Notes under the pieces: model-generated
Told to the model about the DNA's origin: nothing
Database searches by the model: none
What the model saw: only the letters and a program-made list of their open reading frames with translations
Shown here: positions 597 through 29,965 of the stretch, in pieces
Numbering within the stretch: position 1 is the stretch's first letter
Layout of the letters: every line of letters begins with the position of its first letter
Source of the DNA: Vibrio tarriae
GTDB lineage: Bacteria; Pseudomonadota; Gammaproteobacteria; Enterobacterales; Vibrionaceae
Length of the DNA: 64,000 nucleotides
Direction of reading: 5' to 3'
Assembly (NCBI RefSeq): GCF_002216685.1
Contig: NZ_CP022352.1
Span: 186,001-250,000, forward strand
Program-made: the position numbers and the translations under genes

Positions 597-1391
597 TTAT
601 TTTTGGGTTAGATAAGGATATTCAACGCAACCTAGTTTCGCAGAAATACGTGCCGCAGCCTGGTGCAGCTCTTGCACATATTCAACCTGCTTTTGCTCAG
701 TAAAACGAATTGTCGGCAGTGAAACGCTCATACCTGCAACCACACGGTTAAAACGATCATAAACAGGTACAGCCAAACAGCGCAATCCAACTTCTTGCTC
801 TTCATTATCTTGAGCAAAGCCTTGTTCCTTAACGATGGGCAGCTCTTTCAACAGTGAATCCACATCGCTGTGTGTATTTTCTGTCGATTGAGTAAATTCT
901 ACCTCAGCCAAAATTTGGCGAACTTCCTCTTCACTGCGCTCAGCTAACAAAACTTTACCTATTGCCGTCGAGTAAAGCGGGTTACGACGGCCGATACGAG
1001 ATTGCATGCGTAGATTGTATTTCGAATCAATCTTGTGGATGTAGATGATACCATCACCATCCAACGCCCCTAGGTGTAAAGCTTCCATGGTTAAATCTGA
1101 AATTCGGCGCATTTCCACATCGGCCAATTCAACCAAGTCAACGTATTCTAGGGCTGCCGCCCCTAATTCAAACAGTTTCAATGTCAGTGAGTAATTTTCT
1201 GTTTCACCTTCTTGAGAAACATAGCCCATCGTTTTCATCGTCTGCAAAAAACGGTAAACCGTGCTTTTGGACATCATTAAGCGTTGAGCTAGGTCACTAA
1301 TACCAATGTCTTTCTGAGTTGCTAGCGCTTGAAGAATACCAAAGGTTTTCATTACCGATGAAACAGATTCAGGTTGTTTATCAATTGTCAT
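597..1391 (-). CDS. kdgR: KdgR, IclR-family repressor of uronate catabolism
   Basis: This 264-residue protein has an N-terminal winged helix-turn-helix (about residues 15-75, with MSKSTVYRFLQTMKTMGYV as recognition part) and a C-terminal IclR effector domain (about 80-255). It closely resembles the enterobacterial KdgR I know from memory in the HTH and in the HKIDSKYNLRMQSRIGRRNP region, and length matches. KdgR binds 2-keto-3-deoxygluconate and related intermediates and then leaves AAA-N5-TTT operators. Eleven such boxes occur at the promoters in 5.8-28.4 kb, which strongly supports the name. It is transcribed alone, and I saw no clear box in its own upstream region. Confidence 0.93.
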   Translation of the reverse strand: MTIDKQPESVSSVMKTFGILQALATQKDIGISDLAQRLMMSKSTVYRFLQTMKTMGYVSQEGETENYSLTLKLFELGAAALEYVDLVELADVEMRRISDLTMEALHLGALDGDGIIYIHKIDSKYNLRMQSRIGRRNPLYSTAIGKVLLAERSEEEVRQILAEVEFTQSTENTHSDVDSLLKELPIVKEQGFAQDNEEQEVGLRCLAVPVYDRFNRVVAGMSVSLPTIRFTEQKQVEYVQELHQAAARISAKLGCVEYPYLTQK

Positions 1392-1809
1392 TTTTTATAC
1401 CTATTACTTAATTCCGGCTTTTGACATGCTTAAATGTGCTGTGACCTACCAAGAACGGCGCAAATTACCGAACTTTTTTATTTAGCTCAAACAATTCAAT
1501 ACAACTGGTTTCAATGTTAGACGCCAATCTAAAATAATGTTCTACAAAAAAACAGACCCGAATTCGATTTTTTTGTTTTTTTCTCGCCCGAATTAACGAA
1601 AATTGTGAATTTTACGAGCTTTTGCGCACAAACTGGTTCAATAACAAATTGATAGCGAACTAAAACACAAGGTGAGTTATGCATCTAATCATCAAAAATC
1701 ACTTAAAAACCTTGTGAAAATAACGATTGATAAACCCTTTTTCAGAAATCTGTTCGCGGCAAATATCCACGTCTTCGAACGATATATGCCGCAAACAGAG
1801 AGAGGTTTA
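1392..1809. other. Intergenic region between kdgR and the ABC ATPase gene
   Basis: 418 nt with no convincing gene. It holds the kdgR promoter side, with two copies of CCCGAATT at about 1558 and 1588 separated by T-runs. A 10-bp inverted repeat with one mismatch lies at 1751-1760/1788-1797, just downstream of the ATPase stop. It has a 27-nt loop and no T-tract, so I do not call it a terminator. Confidence 0.5.
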
Positions 1810-4676: not shown

Positions 4677-4678
4677 AA

Positions 4679-5686: not shown

Positions 5687-5831
5687 TACTGTTCCTTAAT
5701 ACGATACGGTAAATCACTAGCAAAATGGCTCATCTTCAATCTCAAGCTTTAGCCTATGTTGCGGGCAGTAAGTCGATCAAAGATTTAGCCTCATTCAAGT
5801 TCAATTTTATTAGAACGCATCGAATTTAATT

Positions 5832-5851
5832 TTTAAAACGCTTTTTCATAT
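5832..5851. promoter_or_regulatory. KdgR-type operator upstream of the permease genes
   Basis: Core AAAACGCTTTTTCA fits the RAAAYRNYRTTTYA pattern with one mismatch. It sits between the terminator of the binding-protein gene and the first permease start, suggesting an internal regulated promoter. Confidence 0.6.
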
Positions 5852-6036: not shown

Positions 6037-6059
6037 GTCTAACGATCAAAGGGATGGAG

Positions 6060-7979
6060 TTACTTCGATTTCCACAGTTGACTCATTCGCATTGGCCCAG
6101 GAGTGGGAAAGTTGTATGACTGAGGCATGTTTTCAGGCACATTGTGCAGCTTGTTATTCACCACAACACCCGCAGGCATAGATTCCACGGTACCAATCAC
6201 ATAGAAGTTATCTTTAGCAATCTGGATGATCTCTTTCATATAGCCATTTTGCTCCTCCTGCGATGAGGTTTTTGTCAGTTTTTGCCACAGCTCAAGCTGG
6301 CGTTTAACATGCGCTGGCGGCTCAACTGCAAACTCATTGGTTGGCTCACTAACCCACAGGTAGTAACCCAATCCCCATGTTGATTCTGGGCTGAATGGCA
6401 TGTAATGACGAGCATCGTCAATGATACCGACACCACCATCCCCGATGATTGGAATCATGTCGAAATCGTTGGTCAAACGAAGGTTAGTCACATGGTTGAT
6501 TTCAAGTACACGAATGTCTAAATACACGCCGACAGCTTTCCATTGGTTTTTCACCAGTTCAAGTGAATCTGCCAATACGCCTTTATCCGCGACTTTTGAG
6601 AGCGCTTCAATCCGCAAACGTTGACCATTTTTGAGTAAGCGGTAGCCTTCTTTATCACGTTTATTCAAACCGAGTGAATCCAGAAGTTGGTTCGCTTTTT
6701 CAGGGTCAAATTCCGTGTACTGAGTCGCCATTTGCTCATCATAGAAAGGCGAAATCTTCAGTGGTGCAACTTGATAAGGGCCAACCGAGCCAGAGAACAC
6801 CGTTTCACTGATCTCTTCACGGTCAATCGCGTGAGATAACGCAATGCGGAAATCTTTGTTTTGGAACAACTCACGCTTGAGTGGATCTTTCGTGGTTTGG
6901 TTCAGCGCAATCGCCAATTCAGTGCTGAGCGTGCTTGGACGGAACTCGTAGGTGTAACCCCCTTTCTTCTCATTTTCAATCAGAAGTGGGCGATAAGACG
7001 TTTGACCAATATGGCGATGTTGGTAATCCGCTTCGCCATTGGCAGCACGTAACACCATTTCTTCTTGATCTTCACTGTAGCGCCAGCGAACAGAATCTAA
7101 ATAAGGCAGTTGGTTACCTTCAGTATCGACTTGCCAATAGTAAGGGTTACGCTCAAACACGGCATAACTTGCATTCGGTCCCGGAGGTGTAGCCACCTTC
7201 CATGCGGTTAACACTGGGCGATCAACGTTGGTGTAATGCTCAATAAAGTAGTGAGCTTCACATTTGGTTGCCGCATATTGACGCCATGAATCAAAGCCAG
7301 CCGCTTTCGCATTCGCAATCGCTTTATCATTGAACTTAGGTAAAAACTGTGAGCAGTAATGCTTAGGGAAGGCGGTATAGCTTTCACTATCGACCGTCGC
7401 AAGGCTACGGATAAACAGACCATTCGGTTTGCTCAACGTAATTTTGACTGTGTACGTATCAATCACTTCTGCGCGAGCGGCATCATGGGTTGGTAGAGCA
7501 AGTGGTCGGTTACCTGAGTGTTCTGGATCGCCCACAATATCATTGATATAAAACGCGATGTCCTCTGCAGTAAACGGAGAACCATCAGACCATTTCACAC
7601 CTTTGCGCAAAGTGATCACAAATTCTGTGTTCTCAGCGTTAGACGTAAAACCGGTCGCCAAGTTTGGGATGATTTTTGAATAGGTAGAATCAAAGTTAAA
7701 CAGGTTATCGTAAGCTACCGTACGAATGCGATGTCCGTTATCGACCACTTTACCTACTAGGTTTAAAGTGCCGCCGTATTGACCAATCGATTCATTCGGC
7801 TCAACCACCAATGGGTTTTCTGGTAAACGCTGTTCCACCGCTGGCAATTTGCCTGCTTTGACTAACTCTGCTAATTGTGGGGCTTCATTGTAGGTTGCTG
7901 CCCATGTTGAAAATGACAGCGCCGCCGCAACAGATAGTGCGATTTTGCCGAATATAGGGGTAAGGTTATGTTGTTTCAT
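6060..7979 (-). CDS. Periplasmic substrate-binding protein of the ABC importer (family 5, OppA/DppA-like)
   Basis: 639 residues starting with a signal peptide (MKQHNLTPIFGKIALSVAAA, cleavage near TWAA). The family 5 solute-binding fold is shown by the WSDGSPFTAEDIAFYIND stretch at about residues 130-147 and by the domain layout. At 639 residues it is longer than typical dipeptide-binding proteins (about 530), closer to the oligosaccharide- and large-peptide-binding members. A good ribosome binding site (GGGAGTG) precedes the ATG. The gene lies 49 nt after the DUF2264 gene in the same direction and before the permeases. It presumably captures imported unsaturated oligosaccharides in the periplasm; no binding residues can be assigned by eye. 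Confidence 0.9.
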   Translation of the reverse strand: MKQHNLTPIFGKIALSVAAALSFSTWAATYNEAPQLAELVKAGKLPAVEQRLPENPLVVEPNESIGQYGGTLNLVGKVVDNGHRIRTVAYDNLFNFDSTYSKIIPNLATGFTSNAENTEFVITLRKGVKWSDGSPFTAEDIAFYINDIVGDPEHSGNRPLALPTHDAARAEVIDTYTVKITLSKPNGLFIRSLATVDSESYTAFPKHYCSQFLPKFNDKAIANAKAAGFDSWRQYAATKCEAHYFIEHYTNVDRPVLTAWKVATPPGPNASYAVFERNPYYWQVDTEGNQLPYLDSVRWRYSEDQEEMVLRAANGEADYQHRHIGQTSYRPLLIENEKKGGYTYEFRPSTLSTELAIALNQTTKDPLKRELFQNKDFRIALSHAIDREEISETVFSGSVGPYQVAPLKISPFYDEQMATQYTEFDPEKANQLLDSLGLNKRDKEGYRLLKNGQRLRIEALSKVADKGVLADSLELVKNQWKAVGVYLDIRVLEINHVTNLRLTNDFDMIPIIGDGGVGIIDDARHYMPFSPESTWGLGYYLWVSEPTNEFAVEPPAHVKRQLELWQKLTKTSSQEEQNGYMKEIIQIAKDNFYVIGTVESMPAGVVVNNKLHNVPENMPQSYNFPTPGPMRMSQLWKSK

Positions 7980-8028: not shown

Positions 8029-9750
8029 TCATGCAACGCTTTTACTTCCTGCCGATATCTGAACCTCTAACTCCGTAATACCTCGATGCGTAACACCAGA
8101 TATCGCAGGTACACATGCGTGTGGATAGAGGATGTTGGTATTGGGAGCACAGGGGTAACAATGGTTTTCCCCAGGTCCCCGAATTAATGCCAGTTCGCTA
8201 AATAATTGCTCTGACTCGATGCGTTTTGATGAAGGTTCACTGTGAGTAAACCAACCACGCCAAGCGTCAACACAATAACCTGTCTGAATGAAAGCCAATT
8301 CACGTTGGCTTTCAATTCGATGAATGCGGATTTCTTTTCCCTCTTTCAGGGTTTGGTAAGTCGTTACGTAACAACCGGTAAAAGGTGACCACTCTGAAAC
8401 TAACGTGTCGCCCACTCGGTAGGTCCGATGGTTCGATTTCCGCCCATACCAACCATGGGTATCGGGATGTTGTATCGCGAGAAGGTTGTCACCAATCCAG
8501 CCTTGGCTGACCCAACGCAAGCTATCGATACAAAAACCATGCTGTGAGCTGTAGGCGAATTTGTAGTATTTGTCCGCACACTCGCGCAGTTCACTGCTTC
8601 CCGGTGCATTGCTGATGAGATAGCTGCCACCATTACGCCAAATTTGATGATGGTGGTTAACCCAATAGGCTTCTGCATGAGAATGAAGAGGCGTAACACG
8701 GCTTTGCCAAAACGGATGATCCTCTTCCAACGCTAATGCGTTAAACGCTTTAAAAGCCAGCAAAGGAGAAGCGGAGCTAGTATAAAACTCACTCATCAAA
8801 AGATTAGGGTAAGCAAAGCCCGGCATTGGCGTGCCATTACAATCCCAAATCGGTTGTTCCGCCCACCAGTTCATCCCCTGCGTCCATAACGTGCGCCACA
8901 AAGGTACATTGCTATGTTCAGGAAGTAGACGCGCCAATTCGGCCCAGAAAGCCAAAATGGCAAAACGGTAATTAAGCGATCGACCGTACCCCAACTGGCT
9001 ACCATCAGTACCAAACCAATTCACATAGGTTTCCGAAAACTGAAGCGCTTGCTTAAGCAAATTAGGAACACGGGGACATTGCGGTTTCCAGCGGCAATAC
9101 ATCAATGCATACAGTTGAAAAGCGAGCGGGTTGTAATAGTCCGTCACTGAGTTGTTGCCATCTTTGTACCAACCCTGTTCTAACTGCATCTGACTAATGG
9201 CATTCAGATCATTGTCTAACTCACTGCTTTCAATGCGTACATCCACACTCTGTAAAGCAGTGAGGATAAGCACTCGAAACCAATACCAATTATTCGGCGG
9301 TAAACTCAAGTGATTGACAGATAACAGCCAGAGTGCCAAATTTTGCTGCTCAGTCGATGAAAAGGGAGACCAATAGATTTCAGGTGCTTCCACTAACGCC
9401 ATTGCAATGGCTGACATCTCCACCACTCGTTGATCATAATCTTTGGCTTTCTGCCAATAATTGGGGGAGTGAGGGTTGGTTCCTTCCATGATTTTCTGTG
9501 CAAGCTGCTGATTGAGCTCTAGGCATAATTTCTTCGCAGGTACTGCCAGCCAAAGTAGGCGACAATAATATTCGATTTGAGCCGTCTGTTCAGAATAGTG
9601 TGCAGCACCATAAGCTTGAGCATCCAAGTTTACCGAGTCAGTAACGACAGCAAGCTGTAAATCCGCAATTTTCTTAGTTAAATCATTAACATTGCTGCGG
9701 TGATTAAATGGTTTAGGTTGCTGAATTAGGTCTTTCAACCGCATGCACAT
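8029..9750 (-). CDS. DUF2264-family protein, probable enzyme acting on uronate oligosaccharides
   Basis: 573 residues without a signal peptide, so likely cytoplasmic. The N-terminal two thirds look like an alpha-helical toroid rich in W, H and Y (for example NWYWFRVLILTALQS and DGSQLGYGRSLNYRFAILAF), and the C-terminal part is beta-rich. This matches what I know of the DUF2264 family, which is found in polysaccharide-utilisation loci. From memory, one CAZy glycoside hydrolase family (GH154, beta-glucuronidases) has been linked to this fold, but I cannot verify that here. It is the first gene of the transporter operon, with a KdgR-type box 62 nt upstream of its start. A role in trimming imported glycosaminoglycan pieces is an inference. 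Confidence 0.7.
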   Translation of the reverse strand: MCMRLKDLIQQPKPFNHRSNVNDLTKKIADLQLAVVTDSVNLDAQAYGAAHYSEQTAQIEYYCRLLWLAVPAKKLCLELNQQLAQKIMEGTNPHSPNYWQKAKDYDQRVVEMSAIAMALVEAPEIYWSPFSSTEQQNLALWLLSVNHLSLPPNNWYWFRVLILTALQSVDVRIESSELDNDLNAISQMQLEQGWYKDGNNSVTDYYNPLAFQLYALMYCRWKPQCPRVPNLLKQALQFSETYVNWFGTDGSQLGYGRSLNYRFAILAFWAELARLLPEHSNVPLWRTLWTQGMNWWAEQPIWDCNGTPMPGFAYPNLLMSEFYTSSASPLLAFKAFNALALEEDHPFWQSRVTPLHSHAEAYWVNHHHQIWRNGGSYLISNAPGSSELRECADKYYKFAYSSQHGFCIDSLRWVSQGWIGDNLLAIQHPDTHGWYGRKSNHRTYRVGDTLVSEWSPFTGCYVTTYQTLKEGKEIRIHRIESQRELAFIQTGYCVDAWRGWFTHSEPSSKRIESEQLFSELALIRGPGENHCYPCAPNTNILYPHACVPAISGVTHRGITELEVQISAGSKSVA

Positions 9751-9811: not shown

Positions 9812-9831
9812 TTTGAAACGCTTTTTTATAT
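9812..9831. promoter_or_regulatory. KdgR-type operator upstream of the DUF2264/ABC operon
   Basis: Core GAAACGCTTTTTTA fits RAAAYRNYRTTTYA with one mismatch, 62 nt upstream of the start at 9750. The remainder of 9751-9964 shows no gene. Confidence 0.65.
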
Positions 9832-11241: not shown

Positions 11242-11261
11242 ATCAAAACATCTTTTCATTT
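11242..11261. promoter_or_regulatory. KdgR-type operator between the maturase and sulfatase genes (1)
   Basis: Core AAAACATCTTTTCA fits RAAAYRNYRTTTYA with one mismatch. It lies 75 nt upstream of the maturase start on the minus strand. Confidence 0.6.
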
Positions 11262-11347: not shown

Positions 11348-12835
11348 ATGAAAAAACCAAACTTACTTTATGTTTTTCCCGATCAGTGGCGCATGATGGC
11401 GTTGAGCATTTGGCAACACGCCACCTACCGGCCTTTTTGCTCTGGCGAGCCCGATCCTGTTTTCACCCCAGTGTTGGACAATTTCATTCAGCAAGCCACC
11501 TTGCTGACCCATGCTGTCAGCAATTGCCCATTATGCAGTCCTCACCGTGGAAGTTTGTTCACTGGGCAATACCCTAATAAAAGTGGCGTTCCACTTAACT
11601 GCCACTCTTTACGGACTATCTCAAATTTGCCGGCTGACGCGGAATGCTTTACCGATGTGCTCTCACAAGCAGGCTATCACATTGGTTACATCGGTAAATG
11701 GCATCTCGATTACCCGACTCCGAATGCGCCTGATAAGCCGGACTGCTATGTAGAAGAACAGTTTCCGGTTTGGGATTCCTATACCGAGCCAGAACGCCGA
11801 CACCACATTGATTACTGGTATGGCTACGGCACTTTTGATGAACATCGCAACCCTCATTATTACGATACGCAAGGTAAACGCCATCAGCCCAAAACATGGT
11901 CGGCCGAGCATGAAGCGGATAAAGCGATCGCTTATCTACTTAATCAGCATGGCGAACGTGATGCACAGAAACCCTTCGCGCTTTTTGTGTCGATGAATCC
12001 GCCACACAGCCCGTATAACAGTGTTAATGACTGCCGTGAGAGTGACCTCGCGTTGTATCAAGCCGCCAGCAATCAGGAACTATTAATCCGCCCAAATGCC
12101 GATGCTTCAATCAACAAAGCCGACAGTGCGCGTTACTATTTCGCCAACATCAGCGGTGTGGATAAAGAGATTGGGCGTATTTTTCAGGCACTAGACGAGA
12201 TCGGCGAGTGGCACAATACCGTGGTCGTGTTTACCAGCGATCACGGTGAAACCCTGTGTAGCCACAGCCTAAACGATGCAAAAAACGTCATTTATGATGA
12301 AGCTCTACGCGTGCCTTTTGTGATTAAAACAGACCACCAGCAGCAATCGACCATCAGCCAAACCTTACTGAGCAGCCCTGATATTATGCCGACCATCTTG
12401 GGCTTACTTGGCGTTCCGATGGCAAATCCTCTTTCGATAGATGGTCGCGATCTCTCTTGCGTGATTACCCAACCACCCGCTCATCCCGCTTTACCAGACT
12501 GCGCGCTTTATCTGCGTAATCAAGACGGAGAGAAAAACGCCTTAGGCGAAGTGATTTCCTATTTCCCGCAGAGCCGTGGTATCCGAACACTTCGCTACAC
12601 ACTGGCATTGGAAATCAATCATCAAGCAGAGCTTATCGCCACCCAGTTGTTCGATAACCAAGCTGATCCGTACCAATTAACTAATTTACCCTTTGAGCCT
12701 CAGGATTCATTCGTAAAACCACTCCTACAACTGATGGCCGAAGAACTGCACCGAATTCAGGATCCTTGGGTAGAACAAGGCATTTTGGCCTCACTCCTAC
12801 CCTATCCAGTTCAATCAACGAAGGATAATTCATGA
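11348..12835 (+). CDS. Type I (Cys) sulfatase, probably cytoplasmic, glycosaminoglycan-type
   Basis: 495 residues of the alkaline-phosphatase-fold sulfatase family. The formylglycine motif CxPxR is C63-S-P-H-R67 followed by GSLFTG. The N-terminal metal aspartate lies in FPDQW (D12), GKWHLDYP is at about 117-124, and the second metal motif is TSDHGET. There is no signal peptide, whereas most bacterial polysaccharide sulfatases are exported, so desulfation probably occurs after uptake. The stop overlaps the next sulfatase start by four bases (ATGA), indicating a tight operon. Which sulfate it removes (uronate 2-O, GalNAc 4-O or 6-O) cannot be read from the sequence by eye. Confidence 0.92.
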   Translation: MKKPNLLYVFPDQWRMMALSIWQHATYRPFCSGEPDPVFTPVLDNFIQQATLLTHAVSNCPLCSPHRGSLFTGQYPNKSGVPLNCHSLRTISNLPADAECFTDVLSQAGYHIGYIGKWHLDYPTPNAPDKPDCYVEEQFPVWDSYTEPERRHHIDYWYGYGTFDEHRNPHYYDTQGKRHQPKTWSAEHEADKAIAYLLNQHGERDAQKPFALFVSMNPPHSPYNSVNDCRESDLALYQAASNQELLIRPNADASINKADSARYYFANISGVDKEIGRIFQALDEIGEWHNTVVVFTSDHGETLCSHSLNDAKNVIYDEALRVPFVIKTDHQQQSTISQTLLSSPDIMPTILGLLGVPMANPLSIDGRDLSCVITQPPAHPALPDCALYLRNQDGEKNALGEVISYFPQSRGIRTLRYTLALEINHQAELIATQLFDNQADPYQLTNLPFEPQDSFVKPLLQLMAEELHRIQDPWVEQGILASLLPYPVQSTKDNS

Positions 12836-14295: not shown

Positions 14296-14298
14296 ACA

Positions 14299-16738: not shown

Positions 16739-19309
16739 TTAAAGTTGAATAACTAATTGAGGTGCAGATCCACTCTCTTTACTAGAGAAATTCACATCCG
16801 ATTTCTGGTGTGCGGGACCTTTATTTTCTAACAGCAGAGACAGCTCGCCTTGCACTATAAGATTCGAAACATCCATCTCTACCCACTCACTCACTTGAGG
16901 AGGTGAGATCGTCACCGTCGCACCTTGTTGTACAATCGGCGGCAAAGTGCTCCAAGTCAGGCTGTTTTCTTGCCATGCACTGGGTTTTAAACGGGATACC
17001 GTGATTGCTCGGGATGCAGCGTTATTGACGTTTTTCACATGCAATCTCAACACCGCTTGTGAATGGGAGGACAGCGCCTGTTGACTCAAGTCGAACTTTA
17101 GAACCGTTTTACGGTTATAGCCCGTAATATCGCTTTTTACGACTAAGTAACTGTTGGTGCCAAAGCTTTGGTTGGCGTATTGCCCATCACGCACAAATAC
17201 ATCGGCACTGACAGTCAAGGTCAAAGGTGGAACCATTGGTACGGCCTCAAAATCCGCCATCACACCTTTCCCCATCAAACGAGACTCTCCAGAAGTTATG
17301 ACTCTTGTTTCCCAAACCTTGTTGCCTTGTTCCACTTTTAACTGTACTTGATCTCCGATCCCCGGTGTCGTCAATGTGATTTTCGGTGTCGTCTGAGATT
17401 CGTCAATCACCAACACACTTGGTTTATTCACAGTGACGGTTTTACCACTCGGCAATTGCAGCGTTCCCGCTTGGTGGAACACAATGCCACTCACCTGCTT
17501 GCTCACATGCGATACCGCTTGTATCTGTGGCGTGTTCGATAGAACGCTTACAGGCACTGAAGCTGCGTAGCTGGCCACCGATTGTGCATCACGATTCGGC
17601 ACCACTATGTACTGATAAGAGGCGTTTGTTGGCTGCCAACTGTGACCCATACGTAACATGAAAACATCCGCAGAAACGGGAGCATCCGGTTGGCCTGTAT
17701 TGATATTTCTCCAGTTGCCAGTTTGGGTTTGATTATCCATTTGCCCATACCAATTGGCAGGAAAAACATAGCCAATACCATCATGGTGAACCCAAGACGC
17801 ATTCACTAACTGACGGCTGCCAGTACTATACACTTGACCATCCACAGTAACAGGTCCATTCAAGCGTGTTTGGTTAACTGTGGTATTCACATATTCTGCG
17901 CGAGTCGACTGAATACCCGCGCCTAAGGCGACCAGTTCATCATCAAAGCTAAACCATGCTTTTTTGGCTTTGGTTTGGTAGGCATCCATATCCATGACAG
18001 CAACGCCATTTCGCCCGTCCGATACGCTACCGACAAATTGGGTTTGCATTTCGATACGCCCCCAATCTGCTGGTTTAATCGCAAATTGTGGTGCCGTTGT
18101 ACCCGGCACTAAAGCCCAGTTCCACACAGGGAAGAGGCCGTGGTATTCATCACCTCTTTGCATGATGAAAGTGCTACCAAAACCGATCCAGTTACCGAGT
18201 AGATTTTCACCATTCCCCGCTTCAGTGGGTTTAATTCGCTTAGAATTCATCTTGATACCAATGAAATGGCCATTAGCCACTTTGCTGGCATAGTCTGAAC
18301 GGTAAAAAGAGCGAAATCCTGCGATGCTTTCCGGCGCACCATTCACATGTTGTTTAAACTGCTGCGCTTCAGCCGCGCGTTCAGGAGCCAACGCAGCGAC
18401 GTAATCGGCTTGGCGTAGAATAGGACCGAGGTTTGCTTTATCCACTCGGCTTAAGCCACGACCACGCGCGTTATAATCCAGCGTGCCATGCCGGCTCATC
18501 CAACGGACACCATCTAAAAAGTAATCCGCAACGAGGCGATTCTTATCTGGGGCAAAATGCCACTGTAAATCGCGAACGTGGTAAGCCCAATAAGACGCGG
18601 CATCAAAGAAAACATCCCCATACCCGCCGTTATAAAGTTGAGCGCCATGTTGCTGGAAGGAAAAATCGGCTTGCACACCTTCTGCTTCAGTAAACACAAT
18701 GGTCTCTTCAATGCCGCCAAGCCCACGTTTCACTTGCGCTGAATCGCTCCCAAGCAAACCGCCGTAGATGACTCCTTTTGAAATATCCGTGCGGTTAGCA
18801 CCAGTTTTGTAAGGCTCTGTCGGCATATCTGAGCGTATCGAAGTACTCAAATCGCTAGGCAACTGGTTTCCAAGCAAAAAGGCTGTTGGGCCGAGATAAA
18901 TCTGTTTACCAATCTCATTCCACCACCAGTTGCTGTTGGTACGGTCAGCGCTGTACCAATGATAAAGACCCGCGATGGCGCCTGCCGCAAAAGTGGGATC
19001 ATTGGAAAGGTAATATTGGGCAGCCAACGCACGCACACGAGTCAAGTGCTCACGGATAGGCGCTTCTTGAGTTGGAATCAGTGCATAGTCAATATCCGAC
19101 CAATGACCATCAGTTTGCTGATTGGCCAGATATTGCGCTGCGAGTGTAGACAGTGGTTGCCCAAGCCCTTGAGCCGCTTCAACGGCAACCTGAGCAAAAT
19201 CAGGCGCAATACGCTGCGTGAGGGTTTGAATGTCGTCTGCCAATGCTGATTGACAGATCATATAGGGAGCCAATAGCCACCACTTTGTCTTCAGTTTGTT
19301 GATCATCAT
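16739..19309 (-). CDS. Secreted polysaccharide lyase family 8 (chondroitin/hyaluronate lyase-like) with C-terminal DNRLRE-type domain
   Basis: 856 residues with a signal peptide ending near SALADD (residue 25). The helical toroid contains NWWWNEIG (127-134). The spacing of N172 (TGANRTD), H221 (QQHG), Y230 (NGGYGD) and R284 matches the catalytic Asn-His-Tyr-Arg set of chondroitin AC lyase, so an active PL8 enzyme is expected. A beta-sandwich region follows. The last roughly 155 residues (VSADVFVRDGQYANQSFG onward, with VLKFDLS and ITVSRLK) form a DNRLRE/CBM96-like module that may bind carbohydrate. It would cut glycosaminoglycans by beta-elimination, giving 4,5-unsaturated uronate ends for GH88. 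PL8 also contains xanthan lyases, but sulfatases and kdu genes favour chondroitin or hyaluronan. Confidence 0.93.
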   Translation of the reverse strand: MMINKLKTKWWLLAPYMICQSALADDIQTLTQRIAPDFAQVAVEAAQGLGQPLSTLAAQYLANQQTDGHWSDIDYALIPTQEAPIREHLTRVRALAAQYYLSNDPTFAAGAIAGLYHWYSADRTNSNWWWNEIGKQIYLGPTAFLLGNQLPSDLSTSIRSDMPTEPYKTGANRTDISKGVIYGGLLGSDSAQVKRGLGGIEETIVFTEAEGVQADFSFQQHGAQLYNGGYGDVFFDAASYWAYHVRDLQWHFAPDKNRLVADYFLDGVRWMSRHGTLDYNARGRGLSRVDKANLGPILRQADYVAALAPERAAEAQQFKQHVNGAPESIAGFRSFYRSDYASKVANGHFIGIKMNSKRIKPTEAGNGENLLGNWIGFGSTFIMQRGDEYHGLFPVWNWALVPGTTAPQFAIKPADWGRIEMQTQFVGSVSDGRNGVAVMDMDAYQTKAKKAWFSFDDELVALGAGIQSTRAEYVNTTVNQTRLNGPVTVDGQVYSTGSRQLVNASWVHHDGIGYVFPANWYGQMDNQTQTGNWRNINTGQPDAPVSADVFMLRMGHSWQPTNASYQYIVVPNRDAQSVASYAASVPVSVLSNTPQIQAVSHVSKQVSGIVFHQAGTLQLPSGKTVTVNKPSVLVIDESQTTPKITLTTPGIGDQVQLKVEQGNKVWETRVITSGESRLMGKGVMADFEAVPMVPPLTLTVSADVFVRDGQYANQSFGTNSYLVVKSDITGYNRKTVLKFDLSQQALSSHSQAVLRLHVKNVNNAASRAITVSRLKPSAWQENSLTWSTLPPIVQQGATVTISPPQVSEWVEMDVSNLIVQGELSLLLENKGPAHQKSDVNFSSKESGSAPQLVIQL

Positions 19310-19470: not shown

Positions 19471-19490
19471 AATGAAAAGCTTTTTTATTT
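19471..19490. promoter_or_regulatory. KdgR-like operator upstream of the PL8 gene
   Basis: Core GAAAAGCTTTTTTA fits the KdgR pattern with two mismatches and lies 162 nt upstream of the start codon. It is the poorest box in the set. Confidence 0.4.
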
Positions 19491-21896: not shown

Positions 21897-23084
21897 TTAC
21901 CAGAAGAAGTTCCGGTAGCCGTTTGCACGCATCAGTGCTTCTAGATAGTAGTAATCACCATAAGGCAGCATGTTGTTGCAAAGACCAATTTTGACGAAGG
22001 ATGCGCCTTCCGCCAGCAGACCGAGAGCCTGTTCATCATCGGTTAAATCGCATTGCTTCATGAGACCTTGCAGCAAGAACAGACCCCAATCGCGGTACAT
22101 TTTTGCTTCTTGTTCATCGTCAATGCACTGCGCAATCAGCAGCAAGCCTGCCGCGGTAATCGCACCAGCAGAGCTGTCCTTATACTGAATTTCATCAGCC
22201 GGTAGGCTGTAATCCCACACAGGTACACCATCGTCCGTGATGTGGTCAGTCGCGTATTTCGCAAGCTGCTTCGCGAGCGTTAAAAACTGCTCATCACCGG
22301 TATAAAGGTAGGTTTGGGCAAAGCCATGAATCGCCCATGATTGACCACGAGCCCAGCAAGAATCATCCGCGTAACCTTGGAAAGTCTCGCCCTTAAGCGG
22401 CTGTTGAGTCACTGGATGGAAATTAAATGAGTGATAAGTTGAGAAATCATCACGCACTATGTGCTTGGCTAAGGTTTCACTGTGGCGCTTAGCAGCATTC
22501 GCATAGACCGGTGAACCTGTCATCTTTGATGCCCAAAAGAGCAGTGCGGTATTTTGCAAAGAATCGATGATCGATTTCCCTTGGGTGATTTCAGGGCCAA
22601 GGGGATGCGTATCGTTCCACGCGACAATGTAACCGCCAATTTTGCGGAAGCGATGAATCAGATGATCGGCGGCGCGAATCGCCATCATCTTGGATTCTTC
22701 ATCCCCTGTCAGTTGATAGTCCGCAACACAGCTTAAGCTGTATTGAAAACCTAAATCATGATCCAACCAGAACGGATCCAAAAGCATGTTGGCAAAGTAA
22801 GATTTGCGCAGTTTAGCGCTGTTTTTAAAGGTTTCTTGGCCTGTCATTTGGTAACAAAGCCAGAGTTCCCCCGTCCAAAATGAGGATACCCAATCAAATT
22901 GGCCACAAAATTCCCATTGATGATCGTGAGTACCGATTTTAGGGTTACGCTCACCAATTTTCGGAATATTACGTGCAATAGCTTCCACCACTTTACTCAG
23001 ATGATTGAGTACCCGAGGTTCATCTAAAGTGCTTGGCAATGGTCGAAGTGCAATAGGTTTGGTCATATAAGTCATTCTCATCAA
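21897..23084 (-). CDS. Unsaturated glucuronyl hydrolase (GH88)
   Basis: 395 residues, no signal peptide, alpha6/alpha6-barrel type. The likely catalytic aspartates are D110 (LDHDLGFQY) and D174 (SIIDSLQN), with spacing close to D88/D149 of the characterised Bacillus enzyme. DDSCWARGQSWAIHGFAQTY is another family hallmark. It hydrolyses the unsaturated uronate from lyase-made oligosaccharides; the product rearranges to 4-deoxy-5-ketouronate, the substrate of KduI. Two overlapping KdgR boxes lie about 85-115 nt upstream, giving it an own regulated promoter. Several in-frame ATGs exist at the start (residues 1, 2, 4 and 7); MTKPIALRPLP may be the true N-terminus. Confidence 0.93.
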   Translation of the reverse strand: MMRMTYMTKPIALRPLPSTLDEPRVLNHLSKVVEAIARNIPKIGERNPKIGTHDHQWEFCGQFDWVSSFWTGELWLCYQMTGQETFKNSAKLRKSYFANMLLDPFWLDHDLGFQYSLSCVADYQLTGDEESKMMAIRAADHLIHRFRKIGGYIVAWNDTHPLGPEITQGKSIIDSLQNTALLFWASKMTGSPVYANAAKRHSETLAKHIVRDDFSTYHSFNFHPVTQQPLKGETFQGYADDSCWARGQSWAIHGFAQTYLYTGDEQFLTLAKQLAKYATDHITDDGVPVWDYSLPADEIQYKDSSAGAITAAGLLLIAQCIDDEQEAKMYRDWGLFLLQGLMKQCDLTDDEQALGLLAEGASFVKIGLCNNMLPYGDYYYLEALMRANGYRNFFW

Positions 23085-24064: not shown

Positions 24065-24084
24065 TTAAAAACAACGTTCCAAGT
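24065..24084. promoter_or_regulatory. KdgR-type operator upstream of kduD
   Basis: Core AAAACAACGTTCCA fits the pattern with one mismatch, in the 129-nt gap between galT and kduD. Confidence 0.5.
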
Positions 24085-24135
24085 TTAAAATTAGGCAAAA
24101 AAATTTATGCGGATGCTCAAGTGCTACTGCTGCTC

Positions 24136-25191
24136 TTACCTTGCTTGTTGTCGGTAATGTACCGCACTCACACTTCTCAATCTTTCTGCGGCCTGTTCTG
24201 GCGTTAAATCACGCTGGCTTTCTGCCAGCATTTCATAACCCACCATAAATTTACGCACGGTCGCACTGCGCAATAGCGGTGGATAAAACAGTGCGTGTAC
24301 TTGCCAATGTTGGCAATCTTGTTCTTCCAAGAAAGGAGCTCCATGCCAACCCATTGAATAAGGGAAGGAGCATTGGAAAAGATTGTCATAACGCGTAGTC
24401 AGTACTTTGATCGCGATGGCCAAATCCTGACGTTGTTCACCAGACAATTCCGTTAAACGACTCACTCGTTGCTTCGGCAACAGCAAGGTTTCAAACGGCC
24501 ATGCCGCCCAATAAGGCACCAGCGCTACCCAAAACTCCGTCTCAACGACAATGCGTTCTTGCAGTGCTAACTCACGCTGAACATAGTCGTACAGCAAAGG
24601 CGAACCGTGCTCAGAAAAATAATCTGCTTGATGTCGATCCTTTTGGCTGACCAGCGTAGGCACAAAACTGTTGGCCCAGATTTGTCCATGTGGATGCGGC
24701 TGGGAACAGCCCATGGTCGCACCTTTATTTTCAAACACTTGAACCCAAGGATAGTGTTGACTCAGCTCCTGAGTTTGCTCAATCCAAGTCCGGATCACTT
24801 GCTCAATTTCGACAGATTCCAATTCTGGAAGTGTCTTGCTGTGATCGGCAGAGAAACAGATCACACGGCTTTCGCCTCGTGCGCTGTGCATTTTAAAAAG
24901 CGGATCATTCAACTGTTCTGCAAAGGGGGTGGTTTCCGTTAATGCTGCAAAGTCATTCTTAAACACATAAGTGCCATTGTAGGTAGGATTGACTTCCCCA
25001 TTGACTCGCTGATTTCCGGGGCATAGAAAGCAGCCTTTGTCGTAGCTTGGTAGTGACTGCTCACTGGCAGCTTCTTGCTGTCCCTGCCATGGGCGCTTCG
25101 CTCTGTGGGGAGACACCAATACCCACTCACCAGTCAACGGGTTGTAGCGACGGTGCGGATGCTCTGCTACTTCAAATTCTTCTAACGTCAT
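24136..25191 (-). CDS. galT: Galactose-1-phosphate uridylyltransferase
   Basis: 351 residues. The catalytic motif is QPHPHGQIW with H166 and H168, matching the numbering of the E. coli enzyme, and zinc-binding C54/C57 occur in CFLCPGN. It swaps UMP from UDP-glucose onto galactose 1-phosphate. No galK or galE is present in the window. This makes sense if the galactose 1-phosphate comes directly from the GH112 phosphorylase in the same gene run instead of from galactokinase. It lies 66 nt after eda and before kduD. Confidence 0.94.
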
Positions 25192-25257
25192 GTTTTCAAT
25201 ACTCTCTACATCCCAGATTTCAACTTGATGGCGTTACCTCAACATCCATCACCACTT

Positions 25258-25890
25258 TCAAGCCGTCAGTGCATCTACCGCTTTGCGAACCAGATTGCCG
25301 ATCTCAGGCCAGTTCTGTTCATCAATCAATTGACCCGGAACCATCCAAGTACCGCCACAAGCCAACACGCTGCTAATGGCTAAATAATCTTGAATATTGG
25401 CGGCTGAAATTCCGCCTGTTGGCATAAATTTCACCGGGTAAACCGCGTTCAACGCTTTGAGCATGTCAGTACCGCCCGATGCACTCGCAGGGAAAAACTT
25501 CAATGTTTTCAATCCCATTTCCATTGCTTGCTCAACAAGGCTCGGGTTATTGACGCCTGGAACTATGGTGACACCACGTTGTTGGCAATATTTGACTATG
25601 GTTGGGTTAAAACCGGGGCTGACGATAAAATCGACTCCCGCTTCAATCGCGGCATCCACTTGATCGGTTCTAAGCACGGTGCCTGCTCCAATCAACATCT
25701 CGGGATAAGCATGACGCATTAAGCGAATCGCCTCTGCTGCGGCTTCCGTTCTGAATGTCACTTCGGCACAAGGCAGGCCGTTCTCCACCAAGGTTTTCGC
25801 TAATTGCACCGCATCTTCTGAACGCTTAATCGCAATCACGGGAACGACTTTCATCGCGCTTAACTGTTTCTCTAATTGGTTTTTACTCAT
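25258..25890 (-). CDS. eda: KDPG/KHG aldolase
   Basis: 210 residues, typical of the class I aldolase trimer. The Schiff-base lysine is K131 (TLKFFPAS) and the general acid/base is E43 (CAEVTFRT); PGVNNPS and MPTGGIS line the phosphate site. It splits 2-keto-3-deoxy-6-phosphogluconate into pyruvate and glyceraldehyde-3-phosphate, completing the uronate route. It starts 22 nt after kdgK. Confidence 0.95.
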   Translation of the reverse strand: MSKNQLEKQLSAMKVVPVIAIKRSEDAVQLAKTLVENGLPCAEVTFRTEAAAEAIRLMRHAYPEMLIGAGTVLRTDQVDAAIEAGVDFIVSPGFNPTIVKYCQQRGVTIVPGVNNPSLVEQAMEMGLKTLKFFPASASGGTDMLKALNAVYPVKFMPTGGISAANIQDYLAISSVLACGGTWMVPGQLIDEQNWPEIGNLVRKAVDALTA

Positions 25891-25912
25891 TTTTCTCTCC
25901 TAGCATGACTGT

Positions 25913-26848: not shown

Positions 26849-26916
26849 AGTGACGTACCTAATACAGCAATCTACATTTCAAGCTATGTAGAGTATTTAA
26901 TCACATGAAATTTATT

Positions 26917-26936
26917 TTTAAAACGACATTTCAATT
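26917..26936. promoter_or_regulatory. KdgR-type operator upstream of kdgK
   Basis: Core AAAACGACATTTCA is a perfect match to RAAAYRNYRTTTYA, 69 nt upstream of the kdgK start. Confidence 0.82.
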
Positions 26937-26972
26937 TAAGTTTTGTTATGTTTTCTTTTCTGTGAGCAAGTT

Positions 26973-26992
26973 AATAAAACGTCATTTCAAAA
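26973..26992. promoter_or_regulatory. KdgR-type operator between kdgK and kduI
   Basis: AATAAAACGTCATTTCAAAA matches the first 17 positions of the enterobacterial consensus I recall. It is the best box in the window, 56 bp centre to centre from its partner. Confidence 0.87.
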
Positions 26993-27153
26993 ATTTTCAT
27001 TTCAAGTAAGAGTGGTAAAGTGCGTACAAGTTGAATGAGGGTGGCTATGTAGAAGGTAAAAAAGAGCAATACCATTACCGAAAGACACGGCCATACAGTT
27101 GATTCATGTCACTGGGAAACAAGGTGACATACTTATTGAAAGAGAATTGAGTA

Positions 27154-27990: not shown

Positions 27991-28124
27991 CGAAGCGACT
28001 TCCTCACTTTTTGGCCAACCTAAGCGATTAGGAAGAGTGATGAGATCGTTCCATGGATAACATGGAAATACATCGATTGGATTCAATGAGCCTCTGAGTT
28101 ATCGGATAACTTGGATGGTAATTT

Positions 28125-28185
28125 TATACTCAAACTACTTGGCGTTGTAGCCATCATCGCTGCAATGCCAAGTAGGAAGGGAATA
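28125..28185 (+). repeat. Internally deleted ERIC element
   Basis: The left end TATACTCAAACTACTTGGCG and right end (GCAATGCCAAGTAGGAAGGGAATA region) match the termini of the full-length elements at 43702, 49211 and 50353. The central 65-70 bp are missing. It lies between kduI and the porin gene. Confidence 0.65.
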
Positions 28186-28225
28186 TTGAATCATAAAAAG
28201 ATGATGCATAGCTGTTCTTAACTCA

Positions 28226-28256
28226 AAGCGCCCTCCGTGGGCATTTTTTATTTAAA
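28226..28256 (+). terminator. Possible kduI terminator
   Basis: A short GC-rich hairpin (GCCC/GGGC, 5-nt loop) is followed by ATTTTTTATTT. The stem is short, so the call is moderate. Confidence 0.5.
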
Positions 28257-28415
28257 AACATAAAGATAAACTGTTTTTCGACATTTACTTTTTTACCTCC
28301 TCACGCTTAGCCTTACTTTTATCAGGTGTAAATACCAATCTGTCTCAATCTGTGAGTTTTGTTTTATTATTTTAGTTTTTTATCTACAGTTTTGATTCTG
28401 ATCTTACTTTAAATA

Positions 28416-28435
28416 ATTAAAACGCTATTTCTATT
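28416..28435. promoter_or_regulatory. KdgR-type operator upstream of the porin gene
   Basis: Core AAAACGCTATTTCT fits the pattern with one mismatch at the last base, about 80 nt upstream of the chosen porin start. Confidence 0.72.
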
Positions 28436-28516
28436 TTAATGATTAAAAAGATCTATATTATTGCAATGGTGAATCAGTTCACTAAAAAACCAATAATTTT
28501 AAGAAATGGAAAGCGT

Positions 28517-29965
28517 ATGAAAATGAAACATGTAGGCTCTAAAACCCTCGTTTGTACCTCCGTTTTGACGGCTTTGTTTGCTGCATCAACCTTTGCAGAA
28601 ACACTGGATCCAAACGATATTCGTAACCAAAGTGCAGCGGCGGTTGATCTTACGACTGAAGCCAAACAAGCGTTCTACGACAGCTCTAGCTCTAAACTGC
28701 ACTCATTCCTTTACTTCCGTGATCGCGAAGAGCGAAAAGAAGGCGAGAGTTTCAAACCCAATATTGAAAACCAAACTCTGCAATTAGCATGGGATTACAA
28801 GTCTGGTTACTTCAAAGATACCGTGGGTCTCGACATCTGGGCTAACATCAACCAGAAAATCGGCGACACCACCGGAATGTCTGAGATCCTGTACTTTGAT
28901 CATGAGTGTGCTAACGATCCTTCTAGCCAAACTTATGACCCAGCGACAGGTCAAACCACTCGCGTTGCTTGTGAAAAATCCTACGCAGCCTTATCGGTAT
29001 TTGCATTAAAAGCAAAATTTGGTGATGAGGCGACAGGGTTGGCTTTGCGTGGTGGTTATACACCCATTAACTTCGGCACGATTCGTTCTAGCTGGGGTTT
29101 GAACCCACACTCTTACCGCGGTATTGAAGCTAAAGCCCACTTTGGCAATTGGGTAGTCGGTTATGCTTTCGCTGATGAATTCAAGAATGACTGGCGCAAA
29201 GATTTCTTACCGATGACCACCGTTTGGCATCAACAACAAAACCCTTTATCAACCAACCAAGGTCATGTAATCGACTTTATCCATACCGTGGGAGCCGTTT
29301 ATAACTTTGATGGTGGTTCATTCGATGTGGGTTACGGTGTTGGTAAAGAATACCGTACGAACTGGCAAGCTCTTGCGAAATATGGCTTTGACCTAGGTGG
29401 TGCAAAAGTCGATTTGACTGGTTTCTACCACGGTTCAATTGCTGAGGAAACTGAGTTAACCGGCGTAAAAGATGCAAAAGCCCAGAGTTATATTGGCTTA
29501 GGAGCGAACATCAAACACGGAAACTTCACTTGGATTGCAGGGGTTTCTGCAACCGATACACAAGGTGAAGAGCTCAACTACAACTTCCGACTCACACCAT
29601 GGGCAAACTCAGATAACCGCAGCTTCCAACAGACGCTTTCCGGCTTAGACGATTACAACACTGATGGTACTCGTGCTGTGAAATTGGGTGTGAACTACAA
29701 CTTCGCAAGCTTTGGAGTACCGGGGCTATCAGCGGGTATGGGTGGCAACTACGGTACTCATGTACGTTCAGATGCGAAAAATGCGGTGTATGATGGCAGC
29801 ATGTACTCCGTGGATTGGAACGTCGGTTACAAGTTCCTTGATGGTGGTCTGGAAGGTCTGAACATTCAAACTTTCCGTAGCTTGTTCCGCGGCGATGACA
29901 TAGTACACAAGAACGATCGTAACGATTTGAAAGTGTTAATCTCTTACAGTGTAACGCTGAAATAA
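28517..29965 (+). CDS. OprD-like outer-membrane porin for uronate oligosaccharides
   Basis: 482 residues from the chosen start MKMKHVGSK, which follows a GGAA ribosome site and gives a proper signal peptide (cleavage near TFAE). An earlier in-frame ATG at 28439 would start almost inside the operator and place 26 polar residues before the signal peptide, so I reject it. The body is beta-strand rich with alternating aromatic residues and ends in strand YSVTLK. The N-terminal helix-like SAAAVDLTTEAKQAFYDSSSSK and overall pattern resemble the OprD/chitoporin family. It would let lyase products cross the outer membrane. Specificity is inferred from the KdgR box and the neighbours. Confidence 0.82.
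   Translation: MKMKHVGSKTLVCTSVLTALFAASTFAETLDPNDIRNQSAAAVDLTTEAKQAFYDSSSSKLHSFLYFRDREERKEGESFKPNIENQTLQLAWDYKSGYFKDTVGLDIWANINQKIGDTTGMSEILYFDHECANDPSSQTYDPATGQTTRVACEKSYAALSVFALKAKFGDEATGLALRGGYTPINFGTIRSSWGLNPHSYRGIEAKAHFGNWVVGYAFADEFKNDWRKDFLPMTTVWHQQQNPLSTNQGHVIDFIHTVGAVYNFDGGSFDVGYGVGKEYRTNWQALAKYGFDLGGAKVDLTGFYHGSIAEETELTGVKDAKAQSYIGLGANIKHGNFTWIAGVSATDTQGEELNYNFRLTPWANSDNRSFQQTLSGLDDYNTDGTRAVKLGVNYNFASFGVPGLSAGMGGNYGTHVRSDAKNAVYDGSMYSVDWNVGYKFLDGGLEGLNIQTFRSLFRGDDIVHKNDRNDLKVLISYSVTLK

What the first reader, a model, noticed from the sequence alone, without database searches (positions are those of the whole stretch)
597..29965. A complete KdgR-controlled glycosaminoglycan utilisation locus with eleven operator-like boxes
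PL8 lyase, porin, ABC importer, sulfatases with maturase, GH88, KduI, KduD, KdgK and Eda form an unbroken path from polymer to central metabolism. KdgR is encoded at one end. Boxes with core AAA-N5-TTT sit at 5832, 9812, 11242, 11290, 19471, 23167, 23181, 24065, 26917, 26973 and 28416, i.e. before nearly every transcription unit. KdgR regulons are best known for pectin, so control of a sulfated-glycosaminoglycan set is notable.
Basis: partly seen in the sequence, partly recalled or inferred. Interest (0 to 1): 0.75.

Follow-up and report, generated by a model that had tools for sequence, protein, structure and literature searches.

The report
KdgR-controlled chondroitin sulfate utilisation locus
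A Vibrio genome carries a gene set for eating chondroitin sulfate (a cartilage and mucus polymer) that a sugar-acid sensor best known from plant-pectin digestion appears to control, and the set includes an unexpected galactose-handling branch.

Summary
A weight matrix trained only on 19 relatives' loci places its 11 best hits in the window (14.4-21.7 bits; best outside the locus 11.1) all between genes of this locus. On 45 kb of E. coli K-12 the kdgT, kduI and kdgK promoters are among the matrix's five best hits, so these are very probably KdgR boxes.

Homology points to chondroitin sulfate (PL8, relatives of 4-O- and 6-O-sulfatases, GH88), not to heparin. In 148 Vibrio genomes GH112 occurs in 17, and exactly those 17 carry the close GH88 and close DUF2264.

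I infer an intracellular relay (dehydratase, GH88, GH112, GalT) that also consumes GlcA-Gal-beta-1,3-HexNAc-type glycans or the proteoglycan linkage region. Its substrate is unproven. This is a new variant of a known kind.

The parts
597..1391 (-). kdgR, IclR-family repressor
   Evidence: NF011671 KdgR equivalog 432.6 bits, cut-off 275; 66% identical to E. coli KdgR; only match in the genome
1810..3516 (-). Opp/Dpp-type ABC importer, fused ATPases
   Evidence: PF00005 (two stretches), PF08352
3516..4676 (-). ABC permease (OppC-like)
   Evidence: PF00528, PF12911
4679..5686 (-). ABC permease (OppB-like)
   Evidence: PF00528, PF19300
5832..5850 (.). KdgR box before the permease operon
   Evidence: 18.5 bits; no box before oppB in 6 of 6 relatives' loci, but one of 15.8 bits in genome G037
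6060..7979 (-). Family-5 solute-binding protein
   Evidence: PF00496; N-terminus looks like a signal peptide by eye
8029..9750 (-). DUF2264/GH154-type, probable beta-D-glucuronate dehydratase
   Evidence: PF10022 292.6 bits; PDB 9o4u E 1.8e-18; 8 of 8 alignable active-site residues kept
9812..9830 (.). KdgR box before DUF2264
   Evidence: 18.5 bits
9918..9936 (.).
   Evidence: 19.0 bits
9965..11167 (-). anaerobic sulfatase maturase (anSME)
   Evidence: TIGR03942 476 bits, cut-off 349
11242..11260 (.). KdgR box between anSME and sulf1
   Evidence: 17.2 bits
11290..11308 (.). KdgR box between anSME and sulf1
   Evidence: 15.7 bits
11348..12835 (+). sulfatase (sulf1), chondroitin 4-O-sulfatase-like
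   Evidence: 6s21 'Endo-4-O-sulfatase' 570 bits; CSPHR motif in the sequence; no signal peptide seen by eye
12832..14295 (+). sulfatase (sulf2), GalNAc-6-O-sulfatase-like
   Evidence: 7oze 539 bits; 6s20 'N-acetylgalactosamine-6-O-sulfatase' 532 bits; CTPSR motif in the sequence
16739..19309 (-). PL8 lyase with CBM96
   Evidence: PF02278 232.8 bits, PF24517; chondroitinase AC 1hm2 E 2.5e-89
19471..19489 (.). KdgR box before PL8
   Evidence: 16.2 bits
19645..21828 (-). GH112 beta-1,3-galactosyl-N-acetylhexosamine phosphorylase
   Evidence: PF09508 537 bits; 3wfz E 1e-174; 82% identical to a V. vulnificus protein (P0015)
21897..23084 (-). GH88 unsaturated glucuronyl hydrolase
   Evidence: 1vd5 E 4.7e-74; PF07470 35.7 bits
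23167..23185 (.). KdgR box before GH88-GH112
   Evidence: 14.7 bits
23181..23199 (.). KdgR box before GH88-GH112
   Evidence: 14.4 bits
23245..24006 (-). kduD
   Evidence: TIGR01832 434.6 bits, cut-off 338.85
24065..24083 (.). weak KdgR-like box before kduD
   Evidence: 9.4 bits, 11.0 in the leave-out run; kduD has a box of 12 bits or more in 8 of 10 relatives' loci and 13.4 in G088
24136..25191 (-). galT, one of two copies in the genome
   Evidence: TIGR00209 609 bits; other copy on contig 2, 67% identical
25258..25890 (-). eda, KDPG aldolase
   Evidence: PF01081
25913..26848 (-). kdgK, KDG kinase (pfkB family)
   Evidence: PF00294 and context
26917..26935 (.). KdgR box between kdgK and kduI
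   Evidence: 21.7 bits
26973..26991 (.). KdgR box between kdgK and kduI
   Evidence: 20.9 bits
27154..27990 (+). kduI
   Evidence: NF002091 453 bits, cut-off 250
28416..28434 (.). KdgR box before the porin
   Evidence: 17.8 bits
28439..29965 (+). OprD-family outer-membrane porin
   Evidence: PF03573 51.7 bits

Best explanation
This is a chondroitin-sulfate utilisation locus on the smaller contig of a Vibrio of the V. cholerae/V. mimicus group, repressed by KdgR and opened when its effector KDG builds up (effector recalled, not tested). Proposed flow, inferred from homology: PL8 cuts the polymer outside; OprD and the Opp-type ABC system import oligosaccharides; two cytosolic sulfatases, matured by anSME, remove 4-O and 6-O sulfate; GH88 takes off the unsaturated uronate, which KduI, KduD, KdgK and Eda bring to pyruvate and triose phosphate. 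The DUF2264 protein probably dehydrates saturated terminal GlcA so that GH88 can remove it too. GH112 then phosphorolyses an exposed Gal-beta-1,3 residue to Gal-1-P, which the locus's own GalT takes up. Shown here: gene content, boxes, their match to E. coli KdgR-related promoters, and co-inheritance. Inferred: localisation, substrates, order of steps, repression.
For: Boxes. E. coli promoters found by the same matrix. Only one KdgR match in the genome, with the stretch MMSKSTVYRFLQTMKT (taken as the recognition helix) unchanged from E. coli. Box placement in relatives, counting genes with at least 60 bases in front: GH88 17 of 17, DUF2264 5 of 5, kduI 6 of 6, kdgK 6 of 7, the sulfate-permease(-galE)-galT unit 7 of 8, kduD 8 of 10, PL8 7 of 10 (the matrix was trained on these regions, and divergent genes share boxes). 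Sulfatase, lyase and GH88 relatives. Dehydratase residues. Co-inheritance of GH112, close GH88 and close DUF2264 in the same 17 of 148 Vibrio genomes, and of sulf1 in 16 of those 17. A V. vulnificus-like genome has most of the locus with 10 boxes.
Against: No expression, binding or growth data. The permease box (5832) has no counterpart in 6 of 6 relatives' loci; kdgR itself and the GGDEF gene have no strong box. In E. coli a 15.8-bit site inside the kdgR coding sequence and a 12.9-bit site before yebK are not known targets to me, and the sites near eda (8.8) and kdgR/yebQ (10.1) are weak. At 10 bits the other half of the window still has 3 hits. The PL8 scores far below the NCBIfam chondroitinase-AC cut-off (354 of 1000 bits), so hyaluronan remains possible. 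DUF2264 also matches 8oi4, named beta-galactosidase, so a hydrolase is not excluded. Co-inheritance may partly reflect transfer of the cluster as one block.
Confidence: 0.8

Rival explanations
1. GH112 and GalT form a separate module for lacto-N-biose or galacto-N-biose from mucins. It is only parked in the chondroitin locus and shares its regulator by position.
For: The V. vulnificus GH112 VV2_1091 is listed with GlcNAc as acceptor (review passage; the primary paper is not held), and a V. vulnificus GH112 is 82% identical to ours. In loci L015 and L018, titled Phycisphaeraceae and Planctomycetes, GH112 sits in a stretch with no match to our GH88, beside a GH123-type gene (scanned in L018; its relative in L015 by clustering).
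Against: GH112 lies 61-120 bases from GH88 in the 16 of 17 Vibrio genomes measured (matched stretches). Of 148 genomes none has one of GH112, close GH88 and close DUF2264 without the other two. A search for GH101 gave no match, but no control genome rang either, so it tells nothing.
Confidence: 0.25
2. The GH112 branch serves the proteoglycan linkage tetrasaccharide GlcA-Gal-beta-1,3-Gal-beta-1,4-Xyl left after chondroitin digestion: a chain-end clean-up role, as the dehydratase would have at the other end.
For: It needs the same beta-1,3-galactoside bond and comes with a chondroitin sulfate locus. The linkage structure is recalled knowledge.
Against: No GH112 in the review passages I saw is listed with galactose as acceptor. 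One tetrasaccharide per chain is little carbon for a dedicated galT (and galE in some relatives).
Confidence: 0.25
3. The main polymer is hyaluronan or another uronate-HexNAc polymer rather than chondroitin sulfate.
For: PL8 members differ in substrate (one search lists xanthan, hyaluronate and chondroitin lyases); Vibrio alginolyticus LWW-9 has a PL8/GH88 hyaluronan locus (PMC8222515, passages).
Against: Two sulfatases closest to 4-O and GalNAc-6-O enzymes plus the maturase. The LWW-9 passages name a PTS importer, and the words GH112 and phosphorylase do not occur in that paper's main text.
Confidence: 0.12
4. The boxes are AT-rich palindromes of no function, or belong to another regulator.
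For: The bare core is not enriched window-wide, and the degenerate palindrome is no commoner genome-wide than its reversed control (66 against 65).
Against:: spacing-specific, concentrated between the genes of this locus, conserved in relatives, and the E. coli kdgT, kduI and kdgK promoters are among the matrix's five best hits in 45 kb.
Confidence: 0.03

Closest known systems
KdgR regulon of enterobacteria and Vibrio (Rodionov et al. 2004, seen only as a reference in PMC6537148 and PMC6045597)
   Same: Orthologous regulator, matching boxes and the kduI/kduD/kdgK core; E. coli kdgT, kduI and kdgK promoters are hit by our matrix
   Different: Here lyase, sulfatase, maturase, dehydratase, GH112 and galT units of a chondroitin locus carry the boxes; the passage in PMC6537148 ties the Vibrio KdgR regulon to oligogalacturonate/pectin
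Bacteroides caccae PUL25 with BcGDH, BcGH88 and PL35 (PMC12269599: abstract, passages and one section)
   Same: A GH154-type dehydratase primes saturated GlcA for GH88; 8 of 8 alignable active-site residues are shared
   Different: A Bacteroides PUL with a PL35 lyase and BcGH109; no GH112 or KdgR in the passages I read
Hyaluronan locus of Vibrio alginolyticus LWW-9 (PMC8222515, passages)
   Same: PL8 plus GH88 plus KDG-pathway enzymes in a Vibrio
   Different: PTS importer; the words KdgR, IclR, GH112 and phosphorylase do not occur in its main text
Lacto-N-biose/galacto-N-biose pathway (GH112, GalT, GalE) of bifidobacteria (recalled) and the V. vulnificus phosphorylase VV2_1091 (review PMC8950772, passages)
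   Same: GH112 and GalT here; a GalE-type gene beside them in 8 of 21 Vibrionaceae loci (clustering; one copy scanned)
   Different: Tied to GH88 and a uronate regulator; no N-acetylhexosamine kinase identified in the locus

Membership tests
KdgR regulon | KdgR ortholog encoded | tested here: met
   NF011671 432.6 bits; 66% to E. coli KdgR; only match in the genome
KdgR regulon | Boxes of the KdgR motif before target operons | tested here: met
KdgR regulon | KdgR binds and represses; KDG relieves | not testable with these tools
   Needs footprinting and expression
Chondroitin sulfate utilisation locus | PL8-type lyase with export signal | tested here: met
   PF02278, 1hm2; the signal is judged by eye from the N-terminus
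Chondroitin sulfate utilisation locus | 4-O and 6-O GalNAc sulfatases plus maturase | tested here: met
   By homology only
Chondroitin sulfate utilisation locus | Activity or growth on chondroitin sulfate | not testable with these tools
   -
GH154-type glucuronate dehydratase | Active-site residues N176 N177 W178 F181 Y229 R285 Y289 Y354 of BcGDH | tested here: met
   8 of 8 kept; residue list from a section of PMC12269599. Loop residue Y175 is Pro here.
GH154-type glucuronate dehydratase | E74 and R78 of BcGDH | not tested
   Outside the alignment
GH112 galactosyl-HexNAc phosphorylase | Three GH112 domains and the acid Asp of the GD(H/Q)WIGTEP stretch | tested here: met
   the third domain is just under its cut-off (26.3 of 26.6 bits); the catalytic role of that Asp is recalled
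GH112 galactosyl-HexNAc phosphorylase | Acceptor specificity | not testable with these tools
   -
Heparin utilisation locus | Heparinase-type lyase | tested here: not met
   None among the 20 genes between 597 and 31100 scanned with Pfam at E 0.001

The most novel reading that the evidence does not exclude
In Vibrionaceae a KdgR-controlled relay (glucuronate dehydratase, then GH88, then GH112 phosphorylase, then GalT and often GalE) takes apart GlcA-Gal-beta-1,3-HexNAc glycans, such as glucuronylated core-1 O-glycans of marine invertebrates or HNK-1-like ends (structures recalled). This would be a new catabolic route in which a uronate sensor also commands galactose entry, with phosphorolysis sparing a kinase step.
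Probability: 0.35. Interest if true: 0.7.

Novelty: new variant of a known kind. Interest (0 to 1): 0.52.

Why it matters
It moves KdgR from a pectin/oligogalacturonate regulator towards a general sensor of unsaturated-uronate catabolism that vibrios have attached to animal-matrix degradation. It also gives a biochemically known enzyme, the Vibrio GH112 phosphorylase, a testable physiological setting: directly behind GH88 and in step with a dehydratase. Three genes whose close forms are found together or not at all in 148 genomes make a sharp enzymology question.

Tried and rejected
Bare-core counting over the whole window was uninformative. GH101 as an O-glycan entry enzyme: no match, but no control genome rang either, so no conclusion. 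KdgR boxes on the GalNAc (aga-like) and galTKM-like regions: none of 12 bits or more; best 6.4 in the first and, in the second, 11.2 inside what looks like galM (gene names there judged from N-termini and position; only the AgaZ-type family, and galT were searched). The original paper on the V. vulnificus enzyme is not held. PMC8688573 held none of the KdgR-box terms I asked for. PMC3878776 (passages) uses the name KdgR for a LacI-family protein of Bacteroides, not this one. Literature: 10 searches, several with listings cut to 10-20 titles. Among the titles and abstract starts listed I saw none that puts a chondroitin or hyaluronan locus under KdgR in Vibrio or couples GH112 to GH88. Papers that contain both terms (for example PMC12834350, PMC8254964, PMC5716241, PMC6265309) were not opened. 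The library lacks most subscription papers, the 2004 KdgR regulon paper among those I did not find.
Full report
What is there. The window lies at 186001-250000 of the 1.1-Mb contig of a 4.12-Mb, two-contig genome. Its GH112 is 98% identical to V. mimicus and 96% (best segment) to V. metoecus, so it belongs to the V. cholerae/V. mimicus group; I did not resolve the species. From 597 to 29965 it encodes KdgR, an Opp-type ABC importer with a family-5 binding protein, a DUF2264 protein, an anaerobic sulfatase maturase, two sulfatases, a GGDEF protein, PL8 with CBM96, GH112, GH88, KduD, GalT, Eda, KdgK, KduI and an OprD porin.

Are the boxes real? The core alone is not enriched in the whole window. 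In the 3.3 kb of locus intergenic DNA it is: 15 against 7.4 +- 2.3, 0 of 200 shuffles. Among spacings N2 to N10 only N5 and N6 exceed every shuffle, and the same pattern appears in 178 intergenic regions of 19 relatives. A 19-column matrix built from those relatives alone (106 sites, 92 distinct, 15.6 bits) was run over all 64 kb. Its 11 best hits, 14.4 to 21.7 bits, all lie in locus intergenic regions; the next is 11.2 (9901, also in the locus) and the best outside the locus 11.1. The box at 24065 scores 9.4. To guard against plain homology of promoters I retrained it leaving out orthologous regions for each of eight promoters; the ten strong boxes stayed at 15.6 or more and 24065 rose to 11.0, while the best value in 31101-64000 was between 9.2 and 11.6. 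At 10 bits the locus intergenic DNA has 13 hits against a shuffle mean of 0.96 (maximum 4 in 100 shuffles), the coding part of the locus none and the rest of the window 3. In 55 kb taken elsewhere in the genome the best is 11.2. Genome-wide, 9 of 66 degenerate palindromes fall in the locus against 0.47 expected, although their total is no higher than that of the reversed-pattern control (65). All 3 exact copies of AAACGNCATTTCA lie here; with one mismatch allowed there are 51 matches, against 37 for the reversed control. Both patterns were written after seeing the boxes.

Are they KdgR boxes? I took five stretches of E. coli K-12 around kdgT, kdgK, kdgR, eda and kduI (45,005 bases, chosen from recall as KdgR-related). 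The Vibrio matrix gave as its best five: the kdgT promoter 21.4, the kduI promoter 19.2 and 16.6, a site inside the kdgR gene 15.8, and the kdgK promoter 15.6. The sixth, 12.9, lies before yebK. The eda region (8.8) and the kdgR/yebQ promoter (10.1) were weak. So three of five chosen places have strong promoter boxes. The window's KdgR is 66% identical to E. coli KdgR, with the stretch MMSKSTVYRFLQTMKT unchanged, and has no other match in the genome.

Which promoters? In the 19 relatives, among genes with at least 60 bases in front, boxes of 12 bits or more precede GH88 in 17 of 17, DUF2264 in 5 of 5, kduI in 6 of 6, kdgK in 6 of 7, the sulfate-permease(-galE)-galT unit in 7 of 8, kduD in 8 of 10, PL8 in 7 of 10, sulf1 in 4 of 5, anSME in 4 of 7 and OprD in 1 of 1. 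They precede oppB in 0 of 6, the binding protein in 0 of 3, GH112 in 0 of 8 and galT in 0 of 3 (one GH112 with a shorter gap, in L014, has 13.4). The matrix was trained on these regions, divergent genes share boxes and rows include split draft genes, so the numbers show distribution, not proof. GH112 and galT are therefore downstream genes of boxed units. The permease box at 5832 has no counterpart in those 6; genome G037 has one of 15.8 bits.

Which polymer? The first sulfatase is closest to the endo-4-O-sulfatase 6s21 (570 bits). PMC6460246 (passages) places a Vibrio chondroitin 4-O-sulfatase and BT_3349 in S1_27 and the 6-O-sulfatase BT_3333 in S1_15; that 6s21 is BT_3349 and 6s20 BT_3333 is recalled. 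The second sulfatase is closest to 7oze (539 bits) and to the GalNAc-6-O-sulfatase 6s20 (532 bits). PL8 is closest to chondroitinase AC but below the curated cut-off of that NCBIfam model. GH88 is closest to unsaturated glucuronyl hydrolases. None of the 20 proteins I scanned is a heparinase-type lyase. By eye the sulfatases, GH88, GH112 and DUF2264 lack signal peptides, whereas PL8, the binding protein and the porin have N-termini that look like them. Desulfation and uronate removal are therefore inferred to be cytosolic.

The part that was missed. DUF2264 matches the beta-D-glucuronate dehydratase structures 9o4u and 9nwf and, a little weaker, 8oi4, named beta-galactosidase. PMC12269599 (abstract, passages and one section) reports that the Bacteroides caccae enzyme primes saturated GlcA for GH88, doubts that family GH154 contains hydrolases, and names ten active-site residues whose alanine mutants were inactive (on what it calls a relatively poor substrate). 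The eight that fall inside the alignment are all kept in the window's protein; two lie outside it. GH112 is 82% identical to a V. vulnificus protein. A review lists V. vulnificus VV2_1091 with GlcNAc as acceptor (PMC8950772 passages). Genome G037, whose GH112 is 98% identical to that V. vulnificus protein, carries in the 37 kb fetched two PL8 genes, GH112, GH88, kduD, galT, galE, sulfate permease, OprD, the importer, DUF2264, anSME and both sulfatases with 10 boxes, but not kduI, kdgK, eda, kdgR or GGDEF. So the characterised enzyme very likely sits in the same setting. That G037 holds VV2_1091 itself is inference.

Co-inheritance. In 148 Vibrio genomes GH112 occurs in 17 (E 1e-50). The same 17 have a GH88 of at least 81% identity; 19 others have a GH88 relative of 68% or less (E 1e-30). 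In 16 of the 17 I measured the gap between the matched stretches: 61-120 bases. The same 17 have DUF2264 of at least 46% identity; three more genomes have a distant DUF2264 (29-32%), each also with a GH88 (E 1e-30). Sulf1 (54% or more) is in 16 of the 17, missing in G057, and two further genomes have a 42-43% relative (E 1e-80). The formal overlap probability is 1e-22, but relatedness and block transfer make it meaningless as a p-value. In 21 Vibrionaceae loci GH88 precedes GH112 in all: directly in 17, and with a sulfatase-like gene between in the 4 Enterovibrio loci. GalT is within the fetched stretch in 18 of 21; by clustering 15 also carry a sulfate permease and 8 a galE (domains checked in L009 only).

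Mechanism. I propose that KdgR keeps the set shut until KDG accumulates; that lyase and dehydratase are two ways of making the unsaturated uronate that GH88 needs; and that once the uronate is gone GH112 and GalT harvest a beta-1,3-linked galactose. Chondroitin itself has no such galactose. The candidates are the linkage region, which the lyase exposes, or glucuronylated Gal-beta-1,3-HexNAc glycans, for which dehydratase, GH88 and GH112 would be used once each. The second fits the strict co-inheritance of dehydratase and GH112 and the dedicated galT better; neither is shown.

Verdict. KdgR control of a chondroitin sulfate set is well supported as a prediction. KdgR regulons in Vibrio are not new as such (a PMC6537148 passage cites Rodionov et al. 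2004), so this is a new variant of a known kind, made more interesting by the galactose branch.

Noticed in passing
window 14581-16668 (+): A GGDEF/GAF protein sits between the sulfatases and PL8. It is present in L002, L025 and G088; in the fetched stretches of the 19 other relatives only a partial 33% match in L013 was seen. No strong KdgR box precedes it.
   Followed up: partly
L009:3999-5621 and its cluster in 15 Vibrionaceae loci: A SulP-type sulfate permease precedes galT (often with galE) in relatives but is missing from the window, L002, L025 and G088. It may deal with sulfate freed in the cytosol.
   Followed up: partly
L025 (V. metoecus OP3H): GH112, PL8, DUF2264 and GGDEF are in pieces and no sulf1 was found, so the locus looks decayed or badly assembled there; G057 shows the same pattern for GH112, DUF2264 and sulf1.
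   Followed up: no
L042 (own genome, contig 2, 1688000-1707000): What looks like an aga-type GalNAc operon with two DeoR-like regulator genes, without KdgR boxes; the reading frames between its PTS-like genes look irregular.
   Followed up: no
L036:4832-4850 (E. coli K-12, inside kdgR): A 15.8-bit KdgR-like box within the kdgR coding sequence of E. coli.
   Followed up: no
L009:12244-14259 and relatives: A second, shorter PL8 follows GH112 in several relatives but not in the window, L002, L025 or G088; the L009 copy has no CBM96 match.
   Followed up: no
L015 and L018 (titled Phycisphaeraceae and Planctomycetes): GH112 69% identical to ours with LacI-type and GH123-type genes nearby (domains scanned in L018) and no match to our GH88; suggests another use or a transfer of GH112.
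   Followed up: partly
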